NCBI GenBank assembly: GCA_021734705.1
Contig: JAIPIJ010000001.1
Location: 1-47,034, forward strand
Direction of reading: 5' to 3'
From: Candidatus Peribacteraceae bacterium
GTDB taxonomy: Bacteria; Patescibacteriota; Gracilibacteria; JAHISY01
DNA: 47,034 nt
How positions within the stretch are numbered: the stretch's first letter is position 1; every line of letters begins with the position of its first letter. Positions 1,921 to 26,564 of this stretch are shown piece by piece. The notes beneath the pieces are model-generated. The model was not told the DNA's origin. It searched no databases and worked only from the letters and a program-made list of their open reading frames with translations. Both the position numbers and the translations under genes were made by a program.

Positions 1921-3378
1921 TTAAGCCCTATTTTTCAGGAGCTGATTGCCGTCAGCCGTATCTTCTATATCAAAACCCAGCTTGAAAATTTGGTCACGGA
2001 GCTCATCTGATTTTTTGAAGTCTTTAGCTGCTCGCGCGGCGGCTCGTTCGTCGAGTAATTTTTGCAGTTCGGGAGTAATTTTGACTTCGTTATTTTCCTG
2101 ATGCGCGAGATCCAGCCCAAGCACTTCATCGAATTTATTGAACGTGGCTTGATTCGCTTTCGGCGATCTAGCGTATTCCCAAGCAGCTGCGAGCGCCCGC
2201 GGGGAATTGAGATCATCAGCGAGAGCTTCGCTGAACTGATCGACTGCCTTTTGATCGACCTTGCCCTTTGGACCAGCTTTCTGGAATTCGTTACGTAGTT
2301 TCTTGAGTGAGCTCTGGGCATTCTCAAGCGCTTCGAAAGTGAAGTTTAATTTGCCGCGGTAATTGGAATTCAAACAGAAATAACGGAAGGCGAGTGGTTC
2401 AATTCTTTTCCTCTCGAGATCAGCGAGCGTGAAAAGATTACCTAGCGATTTACTCATCTTGCCGCCGTCGACCGTGAGAAATTCGTTGTGCAGCCAGAAA
2501 TTCACAAACTTCTTGCCGGTCGCCGCCTCGCTCTGAGCGATTTCGTTTTCGTGATGTACTGGGATGTGGTCGACTCCGCCCGTGTGAATGTCGATAGCAG
2601 CAGGTAGTTTATAGTTGGTAGTTTGTAGAATTTCTGGTGCGAGGTATTTCAAGCTCATCGCGCTACATTCCAAATGCCAACCCGGGAAACCGGCGAGTTG
2701 CTGGTTGCTGGTTGCGGGTTGCTGGTCCGACAAATCTTTGCCAGTTGCGATATCCCAGCGGAGGATGTGATTAGCATTTTCACCGACACAGAATTTCCAC
2801 AGCGCGAAATCAGCAGGATTATTTTTTTCAGACTTTACTGCCACGCGTGCCCCGGCCTCTTTTTCTTCGGCTTTTTGGCCGGACAGCTCGCCGTAATTTT
2901 TAAACTTACCTGTGTCAAAATAAATCCCGTCGGAGGTTTCGTAAGTAAATCCCTGTTCTGCTAATTTCTTAATTAGTTCAACTTGCTCGGTGATATGTTC
3001 GCTAGCTCGCGGCAGATACTTAGGTTTTTTGATATTTAATTTATCGAGATCCACCAAAAATTCTTTTTCGTATTTGCGGGCGATCTCAAGTGGGGAGACT
3101 TTTTCCTTGGCGGCAGACTTCTCGAGTTTATCTTCTCCAGAATCGGAATCGCTAGTCAGATGGCCGACATCAGTAACATTCATCACGTTCTCCACCTCGT
3201 AACCCCAAAATTCGAAACTGCGGCTGAGCAGATCGGCGAAGATGAAGGCGCGGAAATTGCCGATGTGTGGGCTCGCGTACACCGTCGGTCCGCAGGAGTA
3301 AATTTTGACGCGGCCTTTTTCGAGCGGCTCAAAAACCTCTTTCTTGCGGCCGAGCGAATTAGTGAAACGAATTAACAC
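1921..3378 (-). CDS. cysS: cysteinyl-tRNA synthetase with two repeat-derived insertions
   Basis: Class I aminoacyl-tRNA synthetase charging tRNA(Cys). The zinc ligand Cys29 (SCGPTVY), HIGN (38-41), the GWHLECSAM zinc motif, HHENE and KMSKS (about 304-308) are all intact. At 485 aa it is slightly long. Two extra peptides flank the ECS motif: about residues 217-229 (QQPATSNQQLAG) and 251-259 (LQTTNYKLP). Their DNA is made of 7-nt units like those found between genes elsewhere in the window, so they look like in-frame repeat insertions. The GTG start lies 7 nt after a TGCTAAAAT element and is probably leaderless. Confidence 0.95.
   Translation of the reverse strand: MLIRFTNSLGRKKEVFEPLEKGRVKIYSCGPTVYASPHIGNFRAFIFADLLSRSFEFWGYEVENVMNVTDVGHLTSDSDSGEDKLEKSAAKEKVSPLEIARKYEKEFLVDLDKLNIKKPKYLPRASEHITEQVELIKKLAEQGFTYETSDGIYFDTGKFKNYGELSGQKAEEKEAGARVAVKSEKNNPADFALWKFCVGENANHILRWDIATGKDLSDQQPATSNQQLAGFPGWHLECSAMSLKYLAPEILQTTNYKLPAAIDIHTGGVDHIPVHHENEIAQSEAATGKKFVNFWLHNEFLTVDGGKMSKSLGNLFTLADLERKRIEPLAFRYFCLNSNYRGKLNFTFEALENAQSSLKKLRNEFQKAGPKGKVDQKAVDQFSEALADDLNSPRALAAAWEYARSPKANQATFNKFDEVLGLDLAHQENNEVKITPELQKLLDERAAARAAKDFKKSDELRDQIFKLGFDIEDTADGNQLLKNRA
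2602..2628 (-). repeat. heptanucleotide array inside cysS (second insertion)
   Basis: On the minus strand the DNA repeats with period 7 (units such as CTACAAA and CTATAAA). It encodes LQTTNYKLP just before the conserved DIHTGG motif. The same unit type occurs just upstream of tRNA-Val. Confidence 0.7.
2695..2728 (-). repeat. heptanucleotide array inside cysS (first insertion)
   Basis: On the minus strand the DNA consists of 7-nt units CAACCAG, CAACCCG and CAACTCG. It encodes a Gln/Ala/Thr-rich loop just before the FPGWHLECSAM motif. Normal CysS has only a few residues here. Confidence 0.75.
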
Positions 3379-3407: not shown

Positions 3408-3438
3408 TTGAGCTGATTGGCTATGATCGACTTATAAT
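3408..3438 (+). promoter_or_regulatory. candidate promoter of the structured RNA region
   Basis: A consensus -10 box TATAAT (3433-3438) with a weak TTGAGC (3408-3413) 19 nt upstream. Predicted transcription start near 3445. A second possible start lies further in, after the AT-rich palindromes at 3481-3514, so the 5' end of the RNA is uncertain. Confidence 0.4.
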
Positions 3439-4386
3439 CCAAGACCATCATTTAATCAGTTAAAAATCGGAGACCAGGACAATAGATTTTTGTATCTATT
3501 TAAATAGCTATTTAAATATATATTTCCATCCAAAGTGGAGCAAAAATATTGTTCGGCTATGTTTTACCTACTTTGTCGAATTCATTAGAATCTCGTGGAG
3601 CTTGGGTGCAGCTATCCGACTTTTGGATCGGCTGAACTCACTCCTTGACAGGTTGGCGATTAATTTAAAAAAGTTTTGCCGGGCCGCGGGAAATGCAGGG
3701 GAGAGATACTCTCACTCTTTTATTTTCCTCGGCTCGGCAGAACGTCTGGTTCATCTGTCGGGCACCGTTTGCCCTCATCTCTAGAGGGAGATTCTGTATC
3801 CCTGCAACGATGTTGCGGGTCGAAAGAAAGGAATTCTATGGAGTGATGTTCCTAGGTATCAGCGGACGGGTATAGCCCACGAAGGTCCGCTGATTGGTGG
3901 TCGTACCCTATATTGGTACGGCTTGGTTTATTAACAGGCTGGAGAAAGGCCGAAGTGCTTGGTGCTCCAGTCGCATATCGCTCAAGACCATAATGAGTGA
4001 TATTTCCAACTCCACCTCGTGCATCTCGTCTTATCTTCTTAACGAGGACGGACTAAACCTTTTCTCTTTCCATCCACTCCAACTTTGAAGCCCAATTTGA
4101 GCGTCAAATTTCGACGCTCCGTTTGAATGCTCGGTGGGTGAGCGTTAGGGGAAAATCATGAAGTCTATTTAGGGCTCCCTTCTGCCCGAAAAAAGAAGGG
4201 CCGACCGTGTTCCAATCCCGGTGGATCACGGAACTATCGGAACGTCCGGGAAAGCTCCCTCCATCCTTTGGAAAGATGGTAGGGATAAACGATTCCGCCT
4301 CCAGACCCACCCACCCGTTTTTTATCGTCACGATTTTAATCGTGGTGGGTGGGCGTTTCAGAGAACCTCAAAGAGGAGATGAGAAG

Positions 4387-4503
4387 TTGAAGAAGTACAG
4401 CGGTTCCTGCGACTCCGTCCTGGTCGTTCCCGTGCTCCCCAGCACCTGTGACCGCCTGAACATTTCCCAGTTCGGCGGGCTGGGCGTGCGCGTCGAAATC
4501 TAA
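4387..4503 (+). CDS. small ORF (38 aa) inside the structured RNA region
   Basis: Begins at TTG 8 nt after a strong AGAGGAG ribosome-binding site, one of the few clear ones in the window. The peptide starts MKKYSGSCDSVLVV and ends GLGVRVEI, with two cysteines. Third codon positions are almost all G or C, unlike the neighbouring genes, which may reflect RNA structure constraints or a foreign origin. The ribosome-binding site overlaps a small CCTC/GAGG hairpin at 4366-4376 that could mask it. It lies just upstream of the terminator hairpins. A protein function is not recognisable, and the ORF could be chance within a G+C-rich RNA. Confidence 0.35.
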   Translation: MKKYSGSCDSVLVVPVLPSTCDRLNISQFGGLGVRVEI

Positions 4504-4564
4504 GGCCATCGCCTTATACCACCCCGCGGGAAAGCGGGGCCGCACAAATTAACGTCAACCCTTT

Positions 4565-4611
4565 CCGGTGGCGCTTGGATTAAACCCCTTGCGCCACCGG
4601 CTCTCTTTTTT
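4565..4611 (+). terminator. strong intrinsic terminator of the structured RNA
   Basis: Perfect 10-bp stem CCGGTGGCGC (4565-4574) with 4591-4600, a 16-nt loop, then a T-rich tract ending in six Ts. Directly preceded by further hairpins at 4502-4515 and 4522-4539. Confidence 0.85.
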
Positions 4612-4669
4612 AATTAAATTTGAATTCTGCCACCTGATGCGCTAAAAGGAGATTTTGTAAATTTTCACC

Positions 4670-4972
4670 ATGGATCAAACGGAACAAAAACTATATCTAG
4701 AAATTCATTGCTGGGGGCTAGAGGTCTCGCAAATGATGGATAAAATTAGGGAGGCTGTTGGAAAACTTAATGATCTTGAAATTCAGGGTGAAATAACAAA
4801 ACGCAGCTTGGAGGATATAGGCCCTTCGGAAAATCGAACGGTATTTCAGGTTTACATAACTAGGAAAACTTCAGCGGCAGAGAATCTCCAGCTTGTCGAT
4901 ATTCTGCAAAAAACTGGGCGGATGATAGTACTTTGGGTAATGTGCCACCCGGTCAAAGATTCTGCGATCTAA
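4670..4972 (+). CDS. small orphan protein, 100 aa
   Basis: No family recognised. Starts MDQTEQKLYLEIHCWG; soluble, two Cys, no signal or membrane segment; mixed alpha/beta by eye with an amphipathic helix near residues 18-35. An AAGGAG sequence at 4647-4652 is too far from the ATG (17 nt) to be an ideal ribosome-binding site. It follows the RNA terminator and overlaps the end of the convergent 123-aa gene by 4 nt. Confidence 0.55.
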   Translation: MDQTEQKLYLEIHCWGLEVSQMMDKIREAVGKLNDLEIQGEITKRSLEDIGPSENRTVFQVYITRKTSAAENLQLVDILQKTGRMIVLWVMCHPVKDSAI

Positions 4973-5340
4973 GCATCTATTTCTGGCGGGTAGTCAACAT
5001 CACTTGTTGTAGTGACTAACTTAGGAACATTCTCATCACTGCCAATCTTGGGCGGTAAGCCTCTTTTCAATATTTGATCTAAGCCTCTACGGCCTTGATT
5101 TGATAGCAGCAAACCAGCCAAAACTTCGCTAGTGATGGGTTCGCCATTATCCTGTATCGTAAAAAGTTTTGCTGCTGCTTCAGGTTGTCCACAAACGCGT
5201 ACATACAAGATGAGATATCTAACTCGCTCGCGCAATCGTGCTAAAAGGCTCGGTCTTTCTTCGTGGACTTCAGTTCCTGGCTGGTTTTTAAGTGCAGCAA
5301 TCACCTCTTTCGGTCCGGCATTTATGATATCCACAGACAT
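4969..5340 (-). CDS. small orphan protein, 123 aa
   Basis: No family recognised. The N-terminal half is helical (PKEVIAALKNQ, then a basic stretch LLARLRERVRYLILYVRV), the C-terminal half is acidic and Pro/Thr-rich (SDVDYPPEIDA). No signal peptide. The leader is A+T-rich without a Shine-Dalgarno. It follows the 66-aa gene in the same direction 36 nt downstream, so the two may be co-transcribed. Confidence 0.55.
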   Translation of the reverse strand: MSVDIINAGPKEVIAALKNQPGTEVHEERPSLLARLRERVRYLILYVRVCGQPEAAAKLFTIQDNGEPITSEVLAGLLLSNQGRRGLDQILKRGLPPKIGSDENVPKLVTTTSDVDYPPEIDA

Positions 5341-5376
5341 TTAAAAATATTAAATGTGCTTATATCTCGAGGCGGC

Positions 5377-5577
5377 TTATTGTTCGGCATCATCATGACT
5401 GCTTATTTCCGCACATCGCTCAGGAGACACTCCTTGTAAATTATTTACCATAAATCTCATTGCCGCTCTCACAAATTTTCTGACTTTTATCCCAAAAGTT
5501 TCCTTCCGATCGGGCTTAAATGAAATAACACACTCTGTGCCGTTTGGTGGATATACTGAAATTTTAGGCTCTGACAT
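5377..5577 (-). CDS. small orphan protein, 66 aa
   Basis: Function unknown. The 66-aa product starts MSEPKISVYPPNGTECV, is basic in the middle (RKETFGIKVRKFVRAAMRF) and ends acidic. A TATAAT box lies 16 nt before the ATG; the leader ends TTTTTTAAAA directly before ATG, a leader shared with two other small orphan genes here (15453 minus strand, 33701 plus strand). Confidence 0.5.
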   Translation of the reverse strand: MSEPKISVYPPNGTECVISFKPDRKETFGIKVRKFVRAAMRFMVNNLQGVSPERCAEISSHDDAEQ

Positions 5578-5651: not shown

Positions 5652-5661
5652 CTTGTCCGTT

Positions 5662-6927
5662 ATGAAAAATACCCTAACCGCTGTTCTCGGCCTCAACTGG
5701 GGTGATGAGGGCAAAGGCAAGCTCGTCGATATCCTCGCTGGCAAGATGCAGTTCGTCGCTCGCTTCGGCGGCGGAGCGAATGCTGGGCACACGATCGTGG
5801 TTGATGGCCAAAAAGTCGTGCTACACCAATTGCCTTCAGGCGTGCTGCATCCGCAGACGAAGAACGTGATTGGCAACGGCTGCGTCGTGCACTTGCCGAC
5901 TTTGATTGAGGAGATGGAGGAATTAGAGAAGTTGGGCGTGAAATTAACTAATCGGCTTTTTGTCTCTGACCGGGCGACTATCCTTTTCGATTTTCACAAA
6001 GAACTCGATGGCTTGGCAGAGAACAAGCTTGGCGACAAGAAAATTGGCACTACGAAACGGGGGATCGGCCCGGCTTATTCTGACCGGGTGAACCGCAAGA
6101 GTATTCGGCTCGGCGATTTAGCTAATCCAGAAAAATTCGCCGAAAAACTCCGCGCGCGCTTGGAAGAAGTGAATGCGCTTGAGGGCATGCCGTTTAAGTT
6201 TGATGTCGAGCGCGAGCTGACACTTTACGTCGATTTGGCCGAGCGCTTGGAGGGAATGATAGCCGATACTTCCGAGATTCTGCAGGCGGCGATAGCGGAT
6301 GGGAAGACTGTGCTGGCTGAGGGAGCACAGGGTTCGATGCTGGACGTCGATTTCGGGACTTTCCCATTTGTAACCAGTTCGACGACTACTGCCGGGAATA
6401 TCTTCTCAGGACTAGGCATTGCCCCACAAAATCTCGAATCAATCGGAGTCGCCAAGGCCTACACGACCCGTGTCGGTGCTGGGCCATTCCCGACGGAGCT
6501 CGACAATGAATTGGGAGAAAAGATTCGCCAGACTGGAGCAGAGTTTGGCGCGACTACGGGCCGACCGCGTCGTTGCGGTTGGATGGATTTGGTCGCAACT
6601 CGCTTTGCCGCACGGCTGAATGGAACGACTGCGATCAATCTGACTAAACTTGATGTTCTAAATGAATTAGAAGAAATTCAAGTTTGCACGAAGTATCTGC
6701 TGGACGGTGAGGAAATTTCAGGACCGCCAGCGACAGTAGAGGATTACAAGAAAATCGAACCGGTTTTCGAGACTTTACCAGGCTGGCAAGCGGATACTTC
6801 TGCAGCGCGCAAGATTTCAGATCTGCCAAAGAATGCGCAGGACTATATCAAATTCATCGAAAAATATTTAGGTGTGCCAGTGAAGTGGGTTGGTGTGGGA
6901 GTCGAGCGCGAGGCGATGGCTGTGTAG
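5662..6927 (+). CDS. purA: adenylosuccinate synthetase
   Basis: Converts IMP, aspartate and GTP to adenylosuccinate, the first committed step to AMP. From the ATG the protein is 421 aa, the usual length. The GTP-binding loop GDEGKGK is at residues 14-20, followed by GGANAGHTI and, later, GPAYSDR, QGSMLDVDFGTFPFVTSS and TTGRPRRCGW, all family signatures. The 3-codon-longer TTG start is unlikely given the -10 position. Monocistronic, followed by a heptanucleotide array and tRNA-Val. With purC and purE in this window it shows de novo purine synthesis. Confidence 0.97.
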   Translation: MKNTLTAVLGLNWGDEGKGKLVDILAGKMQFVARFGGGANAGHTIVVDGQKVVLHQLPSGVLHPQTKNVIGNGCVVHLPTLIEEMEELEKLGVKLTNRLFVSDRATILFDFHKELDGLAENKLGDKKIGTTKRGIGPAYSDRVNRKSIRLGDLANPEKFAEKLRARLEEVNALEGMPFKFDVERELTLYVDLAERLEGMIADTSEILQAAIADGKTVLAEGAQGSMLDVDFGTFPFVTSSTTTAGNIFSGLGIAPQNLESIGVAKAYTTRVGAGPFPTELDNELGEKIRQTGAEFGATTGRPRRCGWMDLVATRFAARLNGTTAINLTKLDVLNELEEIQVCTKYLLDGEEISGPPATVEDYKKIEPVFETLPGWQADTSAARKISDLPKNAQDYIKFIEKYLGVPVKWVGVGVEREAMAV

Positions 6928-6999: not shown

Positions 7000-7076
7000 G
7001 GGCAATTAGCTCAGCTGGTTAGAGCGTTCCGTTCACATCGGAAAGGTCGCAGGTTCAAGTCCCGCATTGCCCACCA
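7000..7076 (+). tRNA. tRNA-Val (anticodon CAC)
   Basis: Complete cloverleaf with acceptor GGGCAAT/ATTGCCC, discriminator A and encoded CCA. The anticodon arm is TTCCG-TTCACAT-CGGAA, giving CAC, which reads GTG. T-loop GTTCAAGTC. The only tRNA in the window without a palindrome at its 3' end. Confidence 0.95.
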
Positions 7077-16555: not shown

Positions 16556-16562
16556 CACAGCA

Positions 16563-16793
16563 TGCCACTTAAACCCGAGGGGTTGTTTTAAAACCCCTCA
16601 GCCCCGCCCCCGAAGAGTCATCTTCGGAGCGAGGCATCTCCCCTTAATAGGGCAGGCTAACCCCTCTGCCCTACGGGCATCTCCCCTTAACAGGGGAGAA
16701 ATAGAAAATCCCCCCTGACAAGGGGGGATTTAGGGGGTTAGTGGCACATAGAAAATCTCTGCATTGTCTTCATTAGTTCAACCCGAGGGGTTG
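16563..16793. repeat. island of nested G+C-rich palindromes
   Basis: The core is bounded by TGCCACT (16563-16569) and AGTGGCA (16740-16746). It contains hairpins GAGGGGTT 16577-16584 with 16592-16599, CCGAAGA 16610-16616 with 16621-16627, GGGCAG.../CTGCCC, CTCCCCT.../AGGGGAG and AATCCCCCC.../GGGGGGATT. A 14-bp direct repeat (AACCCGAGGGGTTG) occurs at 16572-16585 and 16780-16793. No coding potential. It looks like a composite non-autonomous element, and its first hairpin may terminate purC. Confidence 0.7.
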
Positions 16794-16976
16794 CTAGTCC
16801 CAGATGTTTTGAATTTTTTGCGGCTTAAGTCTTGCAAACAGGATGCGATTAGCGATTGCTATTTTTGCGAGAGCGTTTTCAAAATTTATATTTACTGAAT
16901 TACCAATACTGGAAATAATTTCCCGAAGTTCTTTTTTGGATAGAATGGTTGCGTTATTCTCTGAAATTTCAGGCAT
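16794..16976 (-). CDS. small orphan protein, 60 aa
   Basis: Starts MPEISENNATILSKKEL; one helix-rich domain (LREIISSIGNSVNINFENALAKIAIANRI). Its stop directly abuts the palindrome island. It resembles the next orphan (17040-17237) in pattern: an ELxxxI helix, a short NINFEN/EINLES segment, and a hydrophobic LAxIxI helix. Function unknown. Confidence 0.4.
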   Translation of the reverse strand: MPEISENNATILSKKELREIISSIGNSVNINFENALAKIAIANRILFARLKPQKIQNIWD

Positions 16977-17039
16977 TTTTTGCTCAAAATAATATCAGCA
17001 TTTTTCGTTAGCTTTTTCCGCAAGAGTTTTAAGAATGGT

Positions 17040-17237
17040 TTATTCCGAAACAACCCTACTTATATCTTGGGCAGTCTTAGCCGAAACAAGAATTAATCTA
17101 GCTAAACTATCTAAATCTCCGGCTCGGTTAACCTTAAGGGACTCCAAGTTAATTTCAAGGCCGGTCGCTGCTCCGATTGCTGCTGCCAACTCTGCTGGAC
17201 TATGAAACAAAACTTTTTTGCTAAAATCAGCGCACAC
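17040..17237 (-). CDS. small orphan protein, about 65 aa
   Basis: Helical product with LFHSPAELAAAIGAATGLEINLESLKVNRAGDLDSLARLILVSAKTAQDI. The GTG start used here overlaps the purE promoter, so an internal start (TTG near 17213) is equally possible. Possibly a diverged tandem paralogue of the 60-aa protein downstream. Function unknown. Confidence 0.4.
   Translation of the reverse strand: MCADFSKKVLFHSPAELAAAIGAATGLEINLESLKVNRAGDLDSLARLILVSAKTAQDISRVVSE
17219..17227 (+). promoter_or_regulatory. extended -10 element of purE
   Basis: TGCTAAAAT, 22 nt before the purE ATG. Confidence 0.5.
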
Positions 17238-17249
17238 TAATTTTCCTCA

Positions 17250-25978: not shown

Positions 25979-26026
25979 TCCTACGTTCGCCACGGCGAAC
26001 TTCGGATGGTAAACCAACCTACTACG
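25964..26026 (+). repeat. tRNA-Gln 3'-end repeat, copy 1
   Basis: A 63-bp block made of the last 15 nt of tRNA-Gln plus a hairpin CCATCC (25976-25981)/GGATGG (26004-26009) with TACG and TTCG internal loops and inner stem TTCGCC/GGCGAA. Identical to copy 2. Confidence 0.8.
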
Positions 26027-26066
26027 ATGAAATTTCGGATGATAAAAGAATATTGGGAATCCTTTA

Positions 26067-26091
26067 GCTGACGAAGCTTTAGCGTAGTCAG
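26067..26091. repeat. CGAAGCTTTAGCG hairpin, copy 1
   Basis: GCTGAC/GTCAGC stem around the conserved core CGAAGCTTTAGCGTA, between tRNA 3'-end copies 1 and 2. The partner copy at 26477-26502 has compensating base changes in the stem. Confidence 0.7.
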
Positions 26092-26154
26092 CCTCCACCC
26101 CAGCCATCCTACGTTCGCCACGGCGAACTTCGGATGGTAAACCAACCTACTACG
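26092..26154 (+). repeat. tRNA-Gln 3'-end repeat, copy 2
   Basis: 63 bp identical to copy 1, including the CCTCCACCCCAGCCA tRNA end and the hairpin. The 5' part of the tRNA is missing. Confidence 0.8.
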
Positions 26155-26225
26155 GAGAACTTCGGATGATGAAATAATCTTCATTAAAGCTTAATTAAGG
26201 CTCTAATTTCAATCAGCTTGCAAAG

Positions 26226-26231
26226 TAAAAT
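26226..26231 (+). promoter_or_regulatory. -10 box of the GIY-YIG gene
   Basis: TAAAAT, 7 nt before the ATG at 26239; predicts a leaderless mRNA and fixes the start. Confidence 0.5.
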
Positions 26232-26238
26232 ATCAATT

Positions 26239-26493
26239 ATGTGGTATGTTTATTTTATTCGTAGCCAAAAATCTGATTTTTTATATATTGGCATAACTAA
26301 TAATCTTAAAGAAAGATTGGCTAAACATAATGCTGGTAATGTTTTTTCTAGTAAACCTTATATTCCATTTTCCTTAATAGGGTACATTTGTCTGCCCACT
26401 AAGCGGCAGGCTGCCAGTTTGGAAAAATATTTCAAAACTGGGTCTGGAAAAGCTGTACTCTATAAAAGAATCCTTCAGTCAACGAAGCTTTAG
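26239..26493 (+). CDS. small GIY-YIG nuclease-domain protein
   Basis: 84-aa stand-alone GIY-YIG domain of the type annotated as UvrC-like or UPF0213-like. VYF (4-6) and YIG (16-18) form the GIY-YIG motif, Arg26 (LKERLAKH) and Glu62 (ASLEKYFK) are the expected catalytic residues. The last codons (QSTKL) and stop lie inside a CGAAGCTTTAGCG hairpin. The gene is enclosed by tRNA-Gln 3'-end copies, suggesting that the nuclease and repeats form one mobile unit; activity is inferred. Confidence 0.85.
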   Translation: MWYVYFIRSQKSDFLYIGITNNLKERLAKHNAGNVFSSKPYIPFSLIGYICLPTKRQAASLEKYFKTGSGKAVLYKRILQSTKL

Positions 26494-26502
26494 CGTAGTT
26501 GA
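26477..26502. repeat. CGAAGCTTTAGCG hairpin, copy 2
   Basis: GTCAAC/GTTGAC stem around the same core as copy 1. It encodes the C-terminus of the GIY-YIG protein. Compared with copy 1 (GCTGAC/GTCAGC) the stem bases changed in pairs. Confidence 0.7.
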
Positions 26503-26550
26503 CCTCCACCCCAGCCAGACTACGCTCCTTCGGAGCTTCGTCTGGCTGGC
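26503..26550 (+). repeat. tRNA-Gln 3'-end repeat, copy 3
   Basis: The tRNA end CCTCCACCCCAGCCA is followed by a different stem: CCAGCCAGAC (26511-26520) with 26540-26549, inner GCTCC/GGAGC. TACG and TTCG internal loops are kept although the stems differ. Confidence 0.8.
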
Positions 26551-26564
26551 CAAACCAGTTAGAA

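What the first reader, a model, noticed from the sequence alone, without database searches (positions are those of the whole stretch)
3420..4612. Candidate undescribed large structured RNA (about 1.1 kb)
This is the only long gap without a normal gene. Seen directly: a TATAAT box at the left, at least twelve hairpins with 6-10 bp perfect or G-U-containing stems, a possible long-range stem (TGCAGGG near 3694 with CCCTGCA near 3800), and a near-perfect intrinsic terminator. Such density over 1.1 kb is unusual in protein-poor DNA. I find no RNase P, tmRNA, SRP or intron core. Known giant bacterial RNAs (OLE, GOLLD, ROOL) show that such RNAs exist, but membership cannot be tested by eye.
Basis: partly seen in the sequence, partly recalled or inferred. 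Interest (0 to 1): 0.82.

Follow-up and report, generated by a model that had tools for sequence, protein, structure and literature searches.

The report
Large structured RNA with small ORF
A roughly 1.2-kb stretch of a tiny-genomed (Patescibacteria) bacterium between two housekeeping genes looks like a real, fast-evolving structured RNA that ends in a tiny protein gene; a counterpart sits at the same place in one relative, it matches no RNA family in Rfam, and its function is unknown.

Summary
Window 3445-4612 (+), between cysS and small ORFs before purA, folds far better than shuffles (z -7.3; core without its strongest hairpin z -4.4, 0/50), and has a promoter-like box and a strong terminator-like hairpin. 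It matches no Rfam family, phage, plasmid or IMG/VR pattern; tmRNA and RNase P RNA lie elsewhere in the genome.

(1) A positional homologue exists in one other genus of the family (JAQVAZ010000001.1), also between cysS and purA. It shares a 17-bp hairpin with 3 compensatory changes and no broken pair; its remaining core is also over-structured (z -5.1). (2) Both loci carry, 3' of the structured core, a Shine-Dalgarno-preceded small ORF (38 and 53 codons) with GC3 0.87 against 0.42-0.48 in surrounding genes. The unit is therefore probably not purely non-coding.

Best reading: a lineage-restricted, fast-evolving structured RNA that also encodes a small protein (dual-function RNA or giant structured leader). 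Only two members were found, none in about 340 other class genomes. Transcription, translation and function are inferred. Core homology beyond the shared hairpin, homology of the two peptides, and Shine-Dalgarno sequestration were tested and not shown.

The parts
3409..3438 (+). promoter-like pair TTGAGC-N18-TATAAT, beside the start of the divergent cysS
   Evidence: read directly from the sequence; below the threshold of the consensus scan; G005 has TTGACA-N18-TACTCT at the same place
3445..4612 (+). proposed transcript of about 1.17 kb
   Evidence: from promoter-like box to terminator-like hairpin; fold z -7.3; transcription is inferred
3674..3742 (+). P3 hairpin, shared with G005 (AGUUUUGCCGG...CUCGGCARAA)
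   Evidence: z -10.2 and -8.7 in the two genomes; 17/17 pairs in both, 3 compensatory changes; model R1
3748..4386 (+). structured core, multi-hairpin
   Evidence: z -4.4, 0/50 shuffles; G005 core z -5.1
4374..4378 (+). Shine-Dalgarno AGGAG
   Evidence: the equivalent AGGAGA lies before ATG in G005
4387..4503 (+). small ORF, TTG start, 38 codons: LKKYSGSCDSVLVVPVLPSTCDRLNISQFGGLGVRVEI
   Evidence: GC by codon position 0.58/0.42/0.87, heterogeneity p 2.4e-4, base rate
4565..4612 (+). intrinsic-terminator-like hairpin CCGGTGGCGC...GCGCCACCGG and T run
   Evidence: 10-bp perfect arms, T run

Best explanation
The stretch is a genuine lineage-restricted transcription unit of about 1.17 kb. A promoter next to the divergent cysS drives an RNA whose first ~0.94 kb folds into an elaborate, fast-evolving structure, and whose 3' part carries a small ORF (38 codons here, 53 in the relative) followed by an intrinsic terminator. 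Most likely it works as a dual-function or structured-leader RNA: the structured domain acts in trans as an RNA and/or controls stability or translation in cis, and the ORF is translated into a small protein. Shown: excess structure in two homologues, one hairpin kept through compensatory changes, the same genomic site, and coding-like periodicity with a Shine-Dalgarno sequence in both. Inferred: transcription, translation, and any action of the RNA or the peptide.
For: Fold z -7.3; core without P3 z -4.4 and -5.1 in the two homologues; hairpin excess. Positional homologue between cysS and purA in G005, whereas G001, G003 and G004 have only 40-570 bp there. P3 hairpin: 17/17 pairs formed in both, 3 double-sided changes, slid registers pair far worse; R1 scores 74.8 bits in G005 and nothing convincing in about 340 class genomes. 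Small ORF: GC3 0.87 in both against 0.48/0.42 gene means, codon-position heterogeneity p 2.4e-4 and 9e-5, rare among control small ORFs. tmRNA and RNase P RNA are elsewhere.
Against: Only two members, so no covariation statistics for the core; a block-permutation test of the core alignment was not significant (41/300). P3 covariation in two sequences does not clear the shuffle control (59/500). The two peptides do not align above chance and AlphaFold gives no confident fold. Codon choice does not resemble EF-Tu or ribosomal proteins, so GC3 is not explained by high expression. Predicted pairing of the Shine-Dalgarno region is no stronger than with shuffled leaders. No expression data.
Confidence: 0.5

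Rival explanations
1. A purely non-coding giant RNA of the OLE/GOLLD/ROOL kind, working as a folded RNA or RNA assembly; the small ORF is a by-product of GC-rich helices.
For: Strong structure in both homologues; no protein family for the ORF; the two peptides do not align; ORF codon use unlike highly expressed genes; the ORF plus 3' part of the window is itself well folded (z -4.4).
Against: Codon-position GC heterogeneity in both ORFs, in the frame that starts after a Shine-Dalgarno sequence; the ORF part of G005 is not over-structured (z -1.2).
Confidence: 0.25
2. An ordinary small orphan protein gene with a long, GC-rich, repeat-laden upstream region; the structure is not functional as RNA.
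For: The cysS-purA gap holds different orphan ORFs in relatives; other repeat-rich gaps of this window fold equally well; order of core hairpins not demonstrably conserved.
Against: P3 kept through compensatory changes; excess structure in both homologues despite almost full sequence turnover; about 0.94 kb of leader kept in a genome under 1 Mb.
Confidence: 0.15
3. A decayed mobile element or pseudogene, for example a degenerate group II intron, with no present function.
For: Present in only 2 of 6 family genomes; GC-rich ORF looks foreign to the genome.
Against: No match to intron or other Rfam models at E <= 10, to Pfam domains in the longer frames, or to phage and plasmid records; single copy; same site and layout in two genera.
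Confidence: 0.1

Closest known systems
Dual-function RNAs (RNAIII, SgrS/SgrT, SR1, VcdRP; named in PMC8672173)
   Same: One transcript combining an RNA part with a small ORF
   Different: About 1.17 kb, far larger (own knowledge of their sizes); ORF lies 3' of the structured part; no base-pairing target known; no sequence relation tested
OLE, GOLLD and ROOL giant bacterial RNAs (PMC12286853)
   Same: Large many-helix RNA of unknown role
   Different: No Rfam match; not beside a tRNA island or phage genes; followed by a coding-like ORF; only two members known
Circularly permuted group II introns (PMC8637638)
   Same: Large stand-alone structured RNA in an intergenic region
   Different: No match to Rfam group II models at E <= 10; that paper reports no ORFs within CP group II RNAs
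tmRNA
   Same: RNA with an internal short ORF
   Different: The genome has its own tmRNA on contig C4 (126.6 bits); no tRNA-like part is found here

Membership tests
OLE / GOLLD / ROOL (Rfam) | match to the covariance model | tested here: not met
   no gathering-level hit and not among the E <= 10 hits
OLE / GOLLD / ROOL (Rfam) | GOLLD and ROOL: phage or prophage and often tRNA-island setting | tested here: not met
   neighbours are cysS, small ORFs and purA; nearest tRNA at 7000; no phage-record match
Group II intron, including circularly permuted | match to group II intron models in Rfam | tested here: not met
   no match at E <= 10
tmRNA | tRNA-like domain and tmRNA model match | tested here: not met
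   separate tmRNA found
RNase P RNA | model match | tested here: not met
   separate RNase P RNA on contig C6 at 174.5 bits
Dual-function RNA | small ORF on the same transcript is translated | tested here: inconclusive
   Shine-Dalgarno, start, stop and GC3 periodicity in both homologues; no translation data
Dual-function RNA | the RNA itself has a regulatory function | not testable with these tools
   needs transcript and target experiments
New structured RNA family | covariation across many homologues | tested here: inconclusive
   two members only; 3 compensatory pairs in P3; core not alignable with confidence

The most novel reading that the evidence does not exclude
A previously undescribed class of ~1-kb RNA in Patescibacteria in which a giant folded domain and a small protein made from its 3' part work together (for example the peptide binds or matures the RNA), evolving so fast that only one hairpin and the layout are recognisable between genera.
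Probability: 0.2. Interest if true: 0.8.

Novelty: new variant of a known kind. Interest (0 to 1): 0.55.

Why it matters
Few kilobase-scale structured RNAs are known in bacteria and their roles are mostly open. An example in a Patescibacterial genome of about 1 Mb or less, carried by two genera at one site while the sequence has changed almost completely, would be costly to keep without a function. If the small ORF is translated, it would extend dual-function RNAs to giant size. It also shows how an RNA can diverge beyond recognition by sequence search within one bacterial family, and how gene order can still find it.

Tried and rejected
Rfam at gathering and E <= 10: only low-score chance hits. 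Blastn in phages and plasmids: none. Peptide of G005 in 288 class genomes and IMG/VR: no relative beyond G005 itself; the best weak hits I opened were chance (L031 is antisense to a metK-like gene). Hairpin pattern in IMG/VR: three matches, the two from related contigs in coding sequence by eye, none with the layout. The same pattern in 353 class genomes: all but one of the other matches lie in long open frames; the exception, G253 (L056), has a GC-rich small frame but no RNA before it and no convincing relatives, so it was dropped. R1 in class and phylum: extra low hits lie over long open frames. cysS neighbourhoods in GTDB genomes: G005 itself was recovered; the more distant ones checked have other genes upstream of cysS. 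Conserved order of core hairpins, peptide homology, Shine-Dalgarno sequestration and high-expression codon bias were tested and not supported. The bracket string was out of register with the alignment; one search uses the correct one.

Full report
The window lies in an 854-kb, 51-contig genome. Its relative in a neighbouring genus, G005, corresponds to the public contig JAQVAZ010000001.1, labelled Ca. Gracilibacteria STD2_53; the next cysS matches, at about 50% identity, are Ca. Uhrbacteria. So this is a Patescibacterium, but the exact class is uncertain. The finding lies between cysS (minus strand, 1921-3378) and small ORFs that precede purA (plus strand, 5653-6927) (gene names from my reading of the proteins).

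Observation. The element folds at -352.5 kcal/mol over 981 nt, z = -7.3, with no shuffle as good. Hairpins of 7 bp or more are about twice as many as in dinucleotide shuffles, and excess folding remains when the strongest hairpin is left out. Two other gaps of the same window, full of inverted repeats, fold at least as well, so energy alone is not proof; homologues are needed.

Homologue. Blastn in 60 relatives found only short AT-rich matches. Going by position instead, I read the cysS-purA gap in relatives. It is about 40 bp in G001, 316 bp in G004 and 570 bp in G003, but 1.2 kb in G005, a different genus of the family. The G005 gap carries, in the same orientation, a promoter-like element beside cysS, the hairpin AGUUUUGCCGG...CUCGGCAAAA, a structured stretch, a Shine-Dalgarno-preceded small ORF and terminator-like hairpins. 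The hairpin aligns over 17 pairs, all formed in both genomes, with three double-sided and two one-sided compatible changes and no broken pair; sliding the register lowers pairing to 41-71%. With two sequences the shuffle control is not decisive (59/500). A covariance model of this hairpin scores 111.7 and 74.8 bits in the two genomes, although it was built from them, so the score only measures specificity: in about 340 class genomes and 287 phylum genomes it finds only borderline matches, which lie over long open frames. The rest of the core is strongly structured in both (z -4.4 and -5.1, 0/50 shuffles) but cannot be aligned beyond chance: a block-permutation test gave 41/300. The element is thus either evolving very fast or only partly homologous. 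The shared site favours descent from a common ancestor with loss in G001, G003 and G004; this is inference.

Small ORF. Near the 3' end, TTG 4387 to TAA 4503 is preceded by AGGAG at 4374, a usual distance. GC by codon position is 0.58/0.42/0.87 here and 0.51/0.53/0.87 in G005, against gene means of 0.48 and 0.42 for GC3. Codon-position heterogeneity has p = 2.4e-4 and 9e-5, but I noticed the ORF by eye first, so the base rate matters: of 1996 small intergenic ORF candidates in 0.6 Mb, this is the only Shine-Dalgarno-preceded one with such a bias; the G005 ORF is hidden from that count by a longer antisense frame. The bias is not that of EF-Tu or ribosomal proteins, so its cause is unexplained. 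The two peptides do not align above chance, match no Pfam, PHROGs or NCBIfam family, and AlphaFold gives no confident fold from single sequences. So the presence and codon character of the ORF are shared, but its sequence is not demonstrably conserved.

Known families. There is no Rfam match at any useful level. tmRNA and RNase P RNA are on other contigs of this genome, which argues against a divergent version of either. Nothing was found in phage or plasmid records or in IMG/VR. Among described kinds the nearest are dual-function RNAs (PMC8672173) and the giant OLE/GOLLD/ROOL RNAs (PMC12286853); a circularly permuted group II intron (PMC8637638) was considered because it too is a large stand-alone RNA, and is not supported.

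Mechanism. Most likely this is one transcript made of a large folded RNA domain followed by a small protein-coding part: a dual-function RNA or a giant structured leader. I tested the simplest control idea, that the fold hides the ribosome-binding site: in the window the site is predicted to pair with 4022-4040, but shuffled leaders pair it nearly as well (8 of 40 reach it), and G005 does not support it. So how the RNA acts remains open. The purely non-coding reading and the plain small-gene reading are both alive; transcript ends, more homologues and ribosome footprints would separate them.

Noticed in passing
window 25979-26564: Gap after tRNA-Gln with repeated CCACCCCAGCCATCCTACGTTCGCC-type stretches that include the tRNA 3' end, plus a small GIY-YIG-like ORF (about 26240-26480, by eye); folds very strongly (z -9.1).
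   Followed up: partly
window 16556-17249: Gap with palindromic CCCCTTAACAGGGG-type repeats; the 600 nt from 16500 have z -7.1.
   Followed up: partly
window 4670-5577: Three orphan small ORFs (100, 123, 66 aa) between the RNA and purA with no convincing family match; the cysS-purA gap holds different small ORFs in G003 and G004, as if a hotspot for orphan genes.
   Followed up: partly
window 3493-3522: AT-rich near-palindrome TATCTATTTAAATAGCTATTTAAATATATA with similar copies elsewhere in the genome (contigs C8, C39) and in G024.
   Followed up: no
L056 about 900-1073 (G253): GC-rich frame with no obvious start codon (KWKISGKKSILEEYHSPPLLDGVRGMQYLDACKRNLDGTDKFTGVNLALTAT) before a terminator-like hairpin, faintly like the two small ORFs here at its C-terminus; no convincing relatives.
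   Followed up: partly
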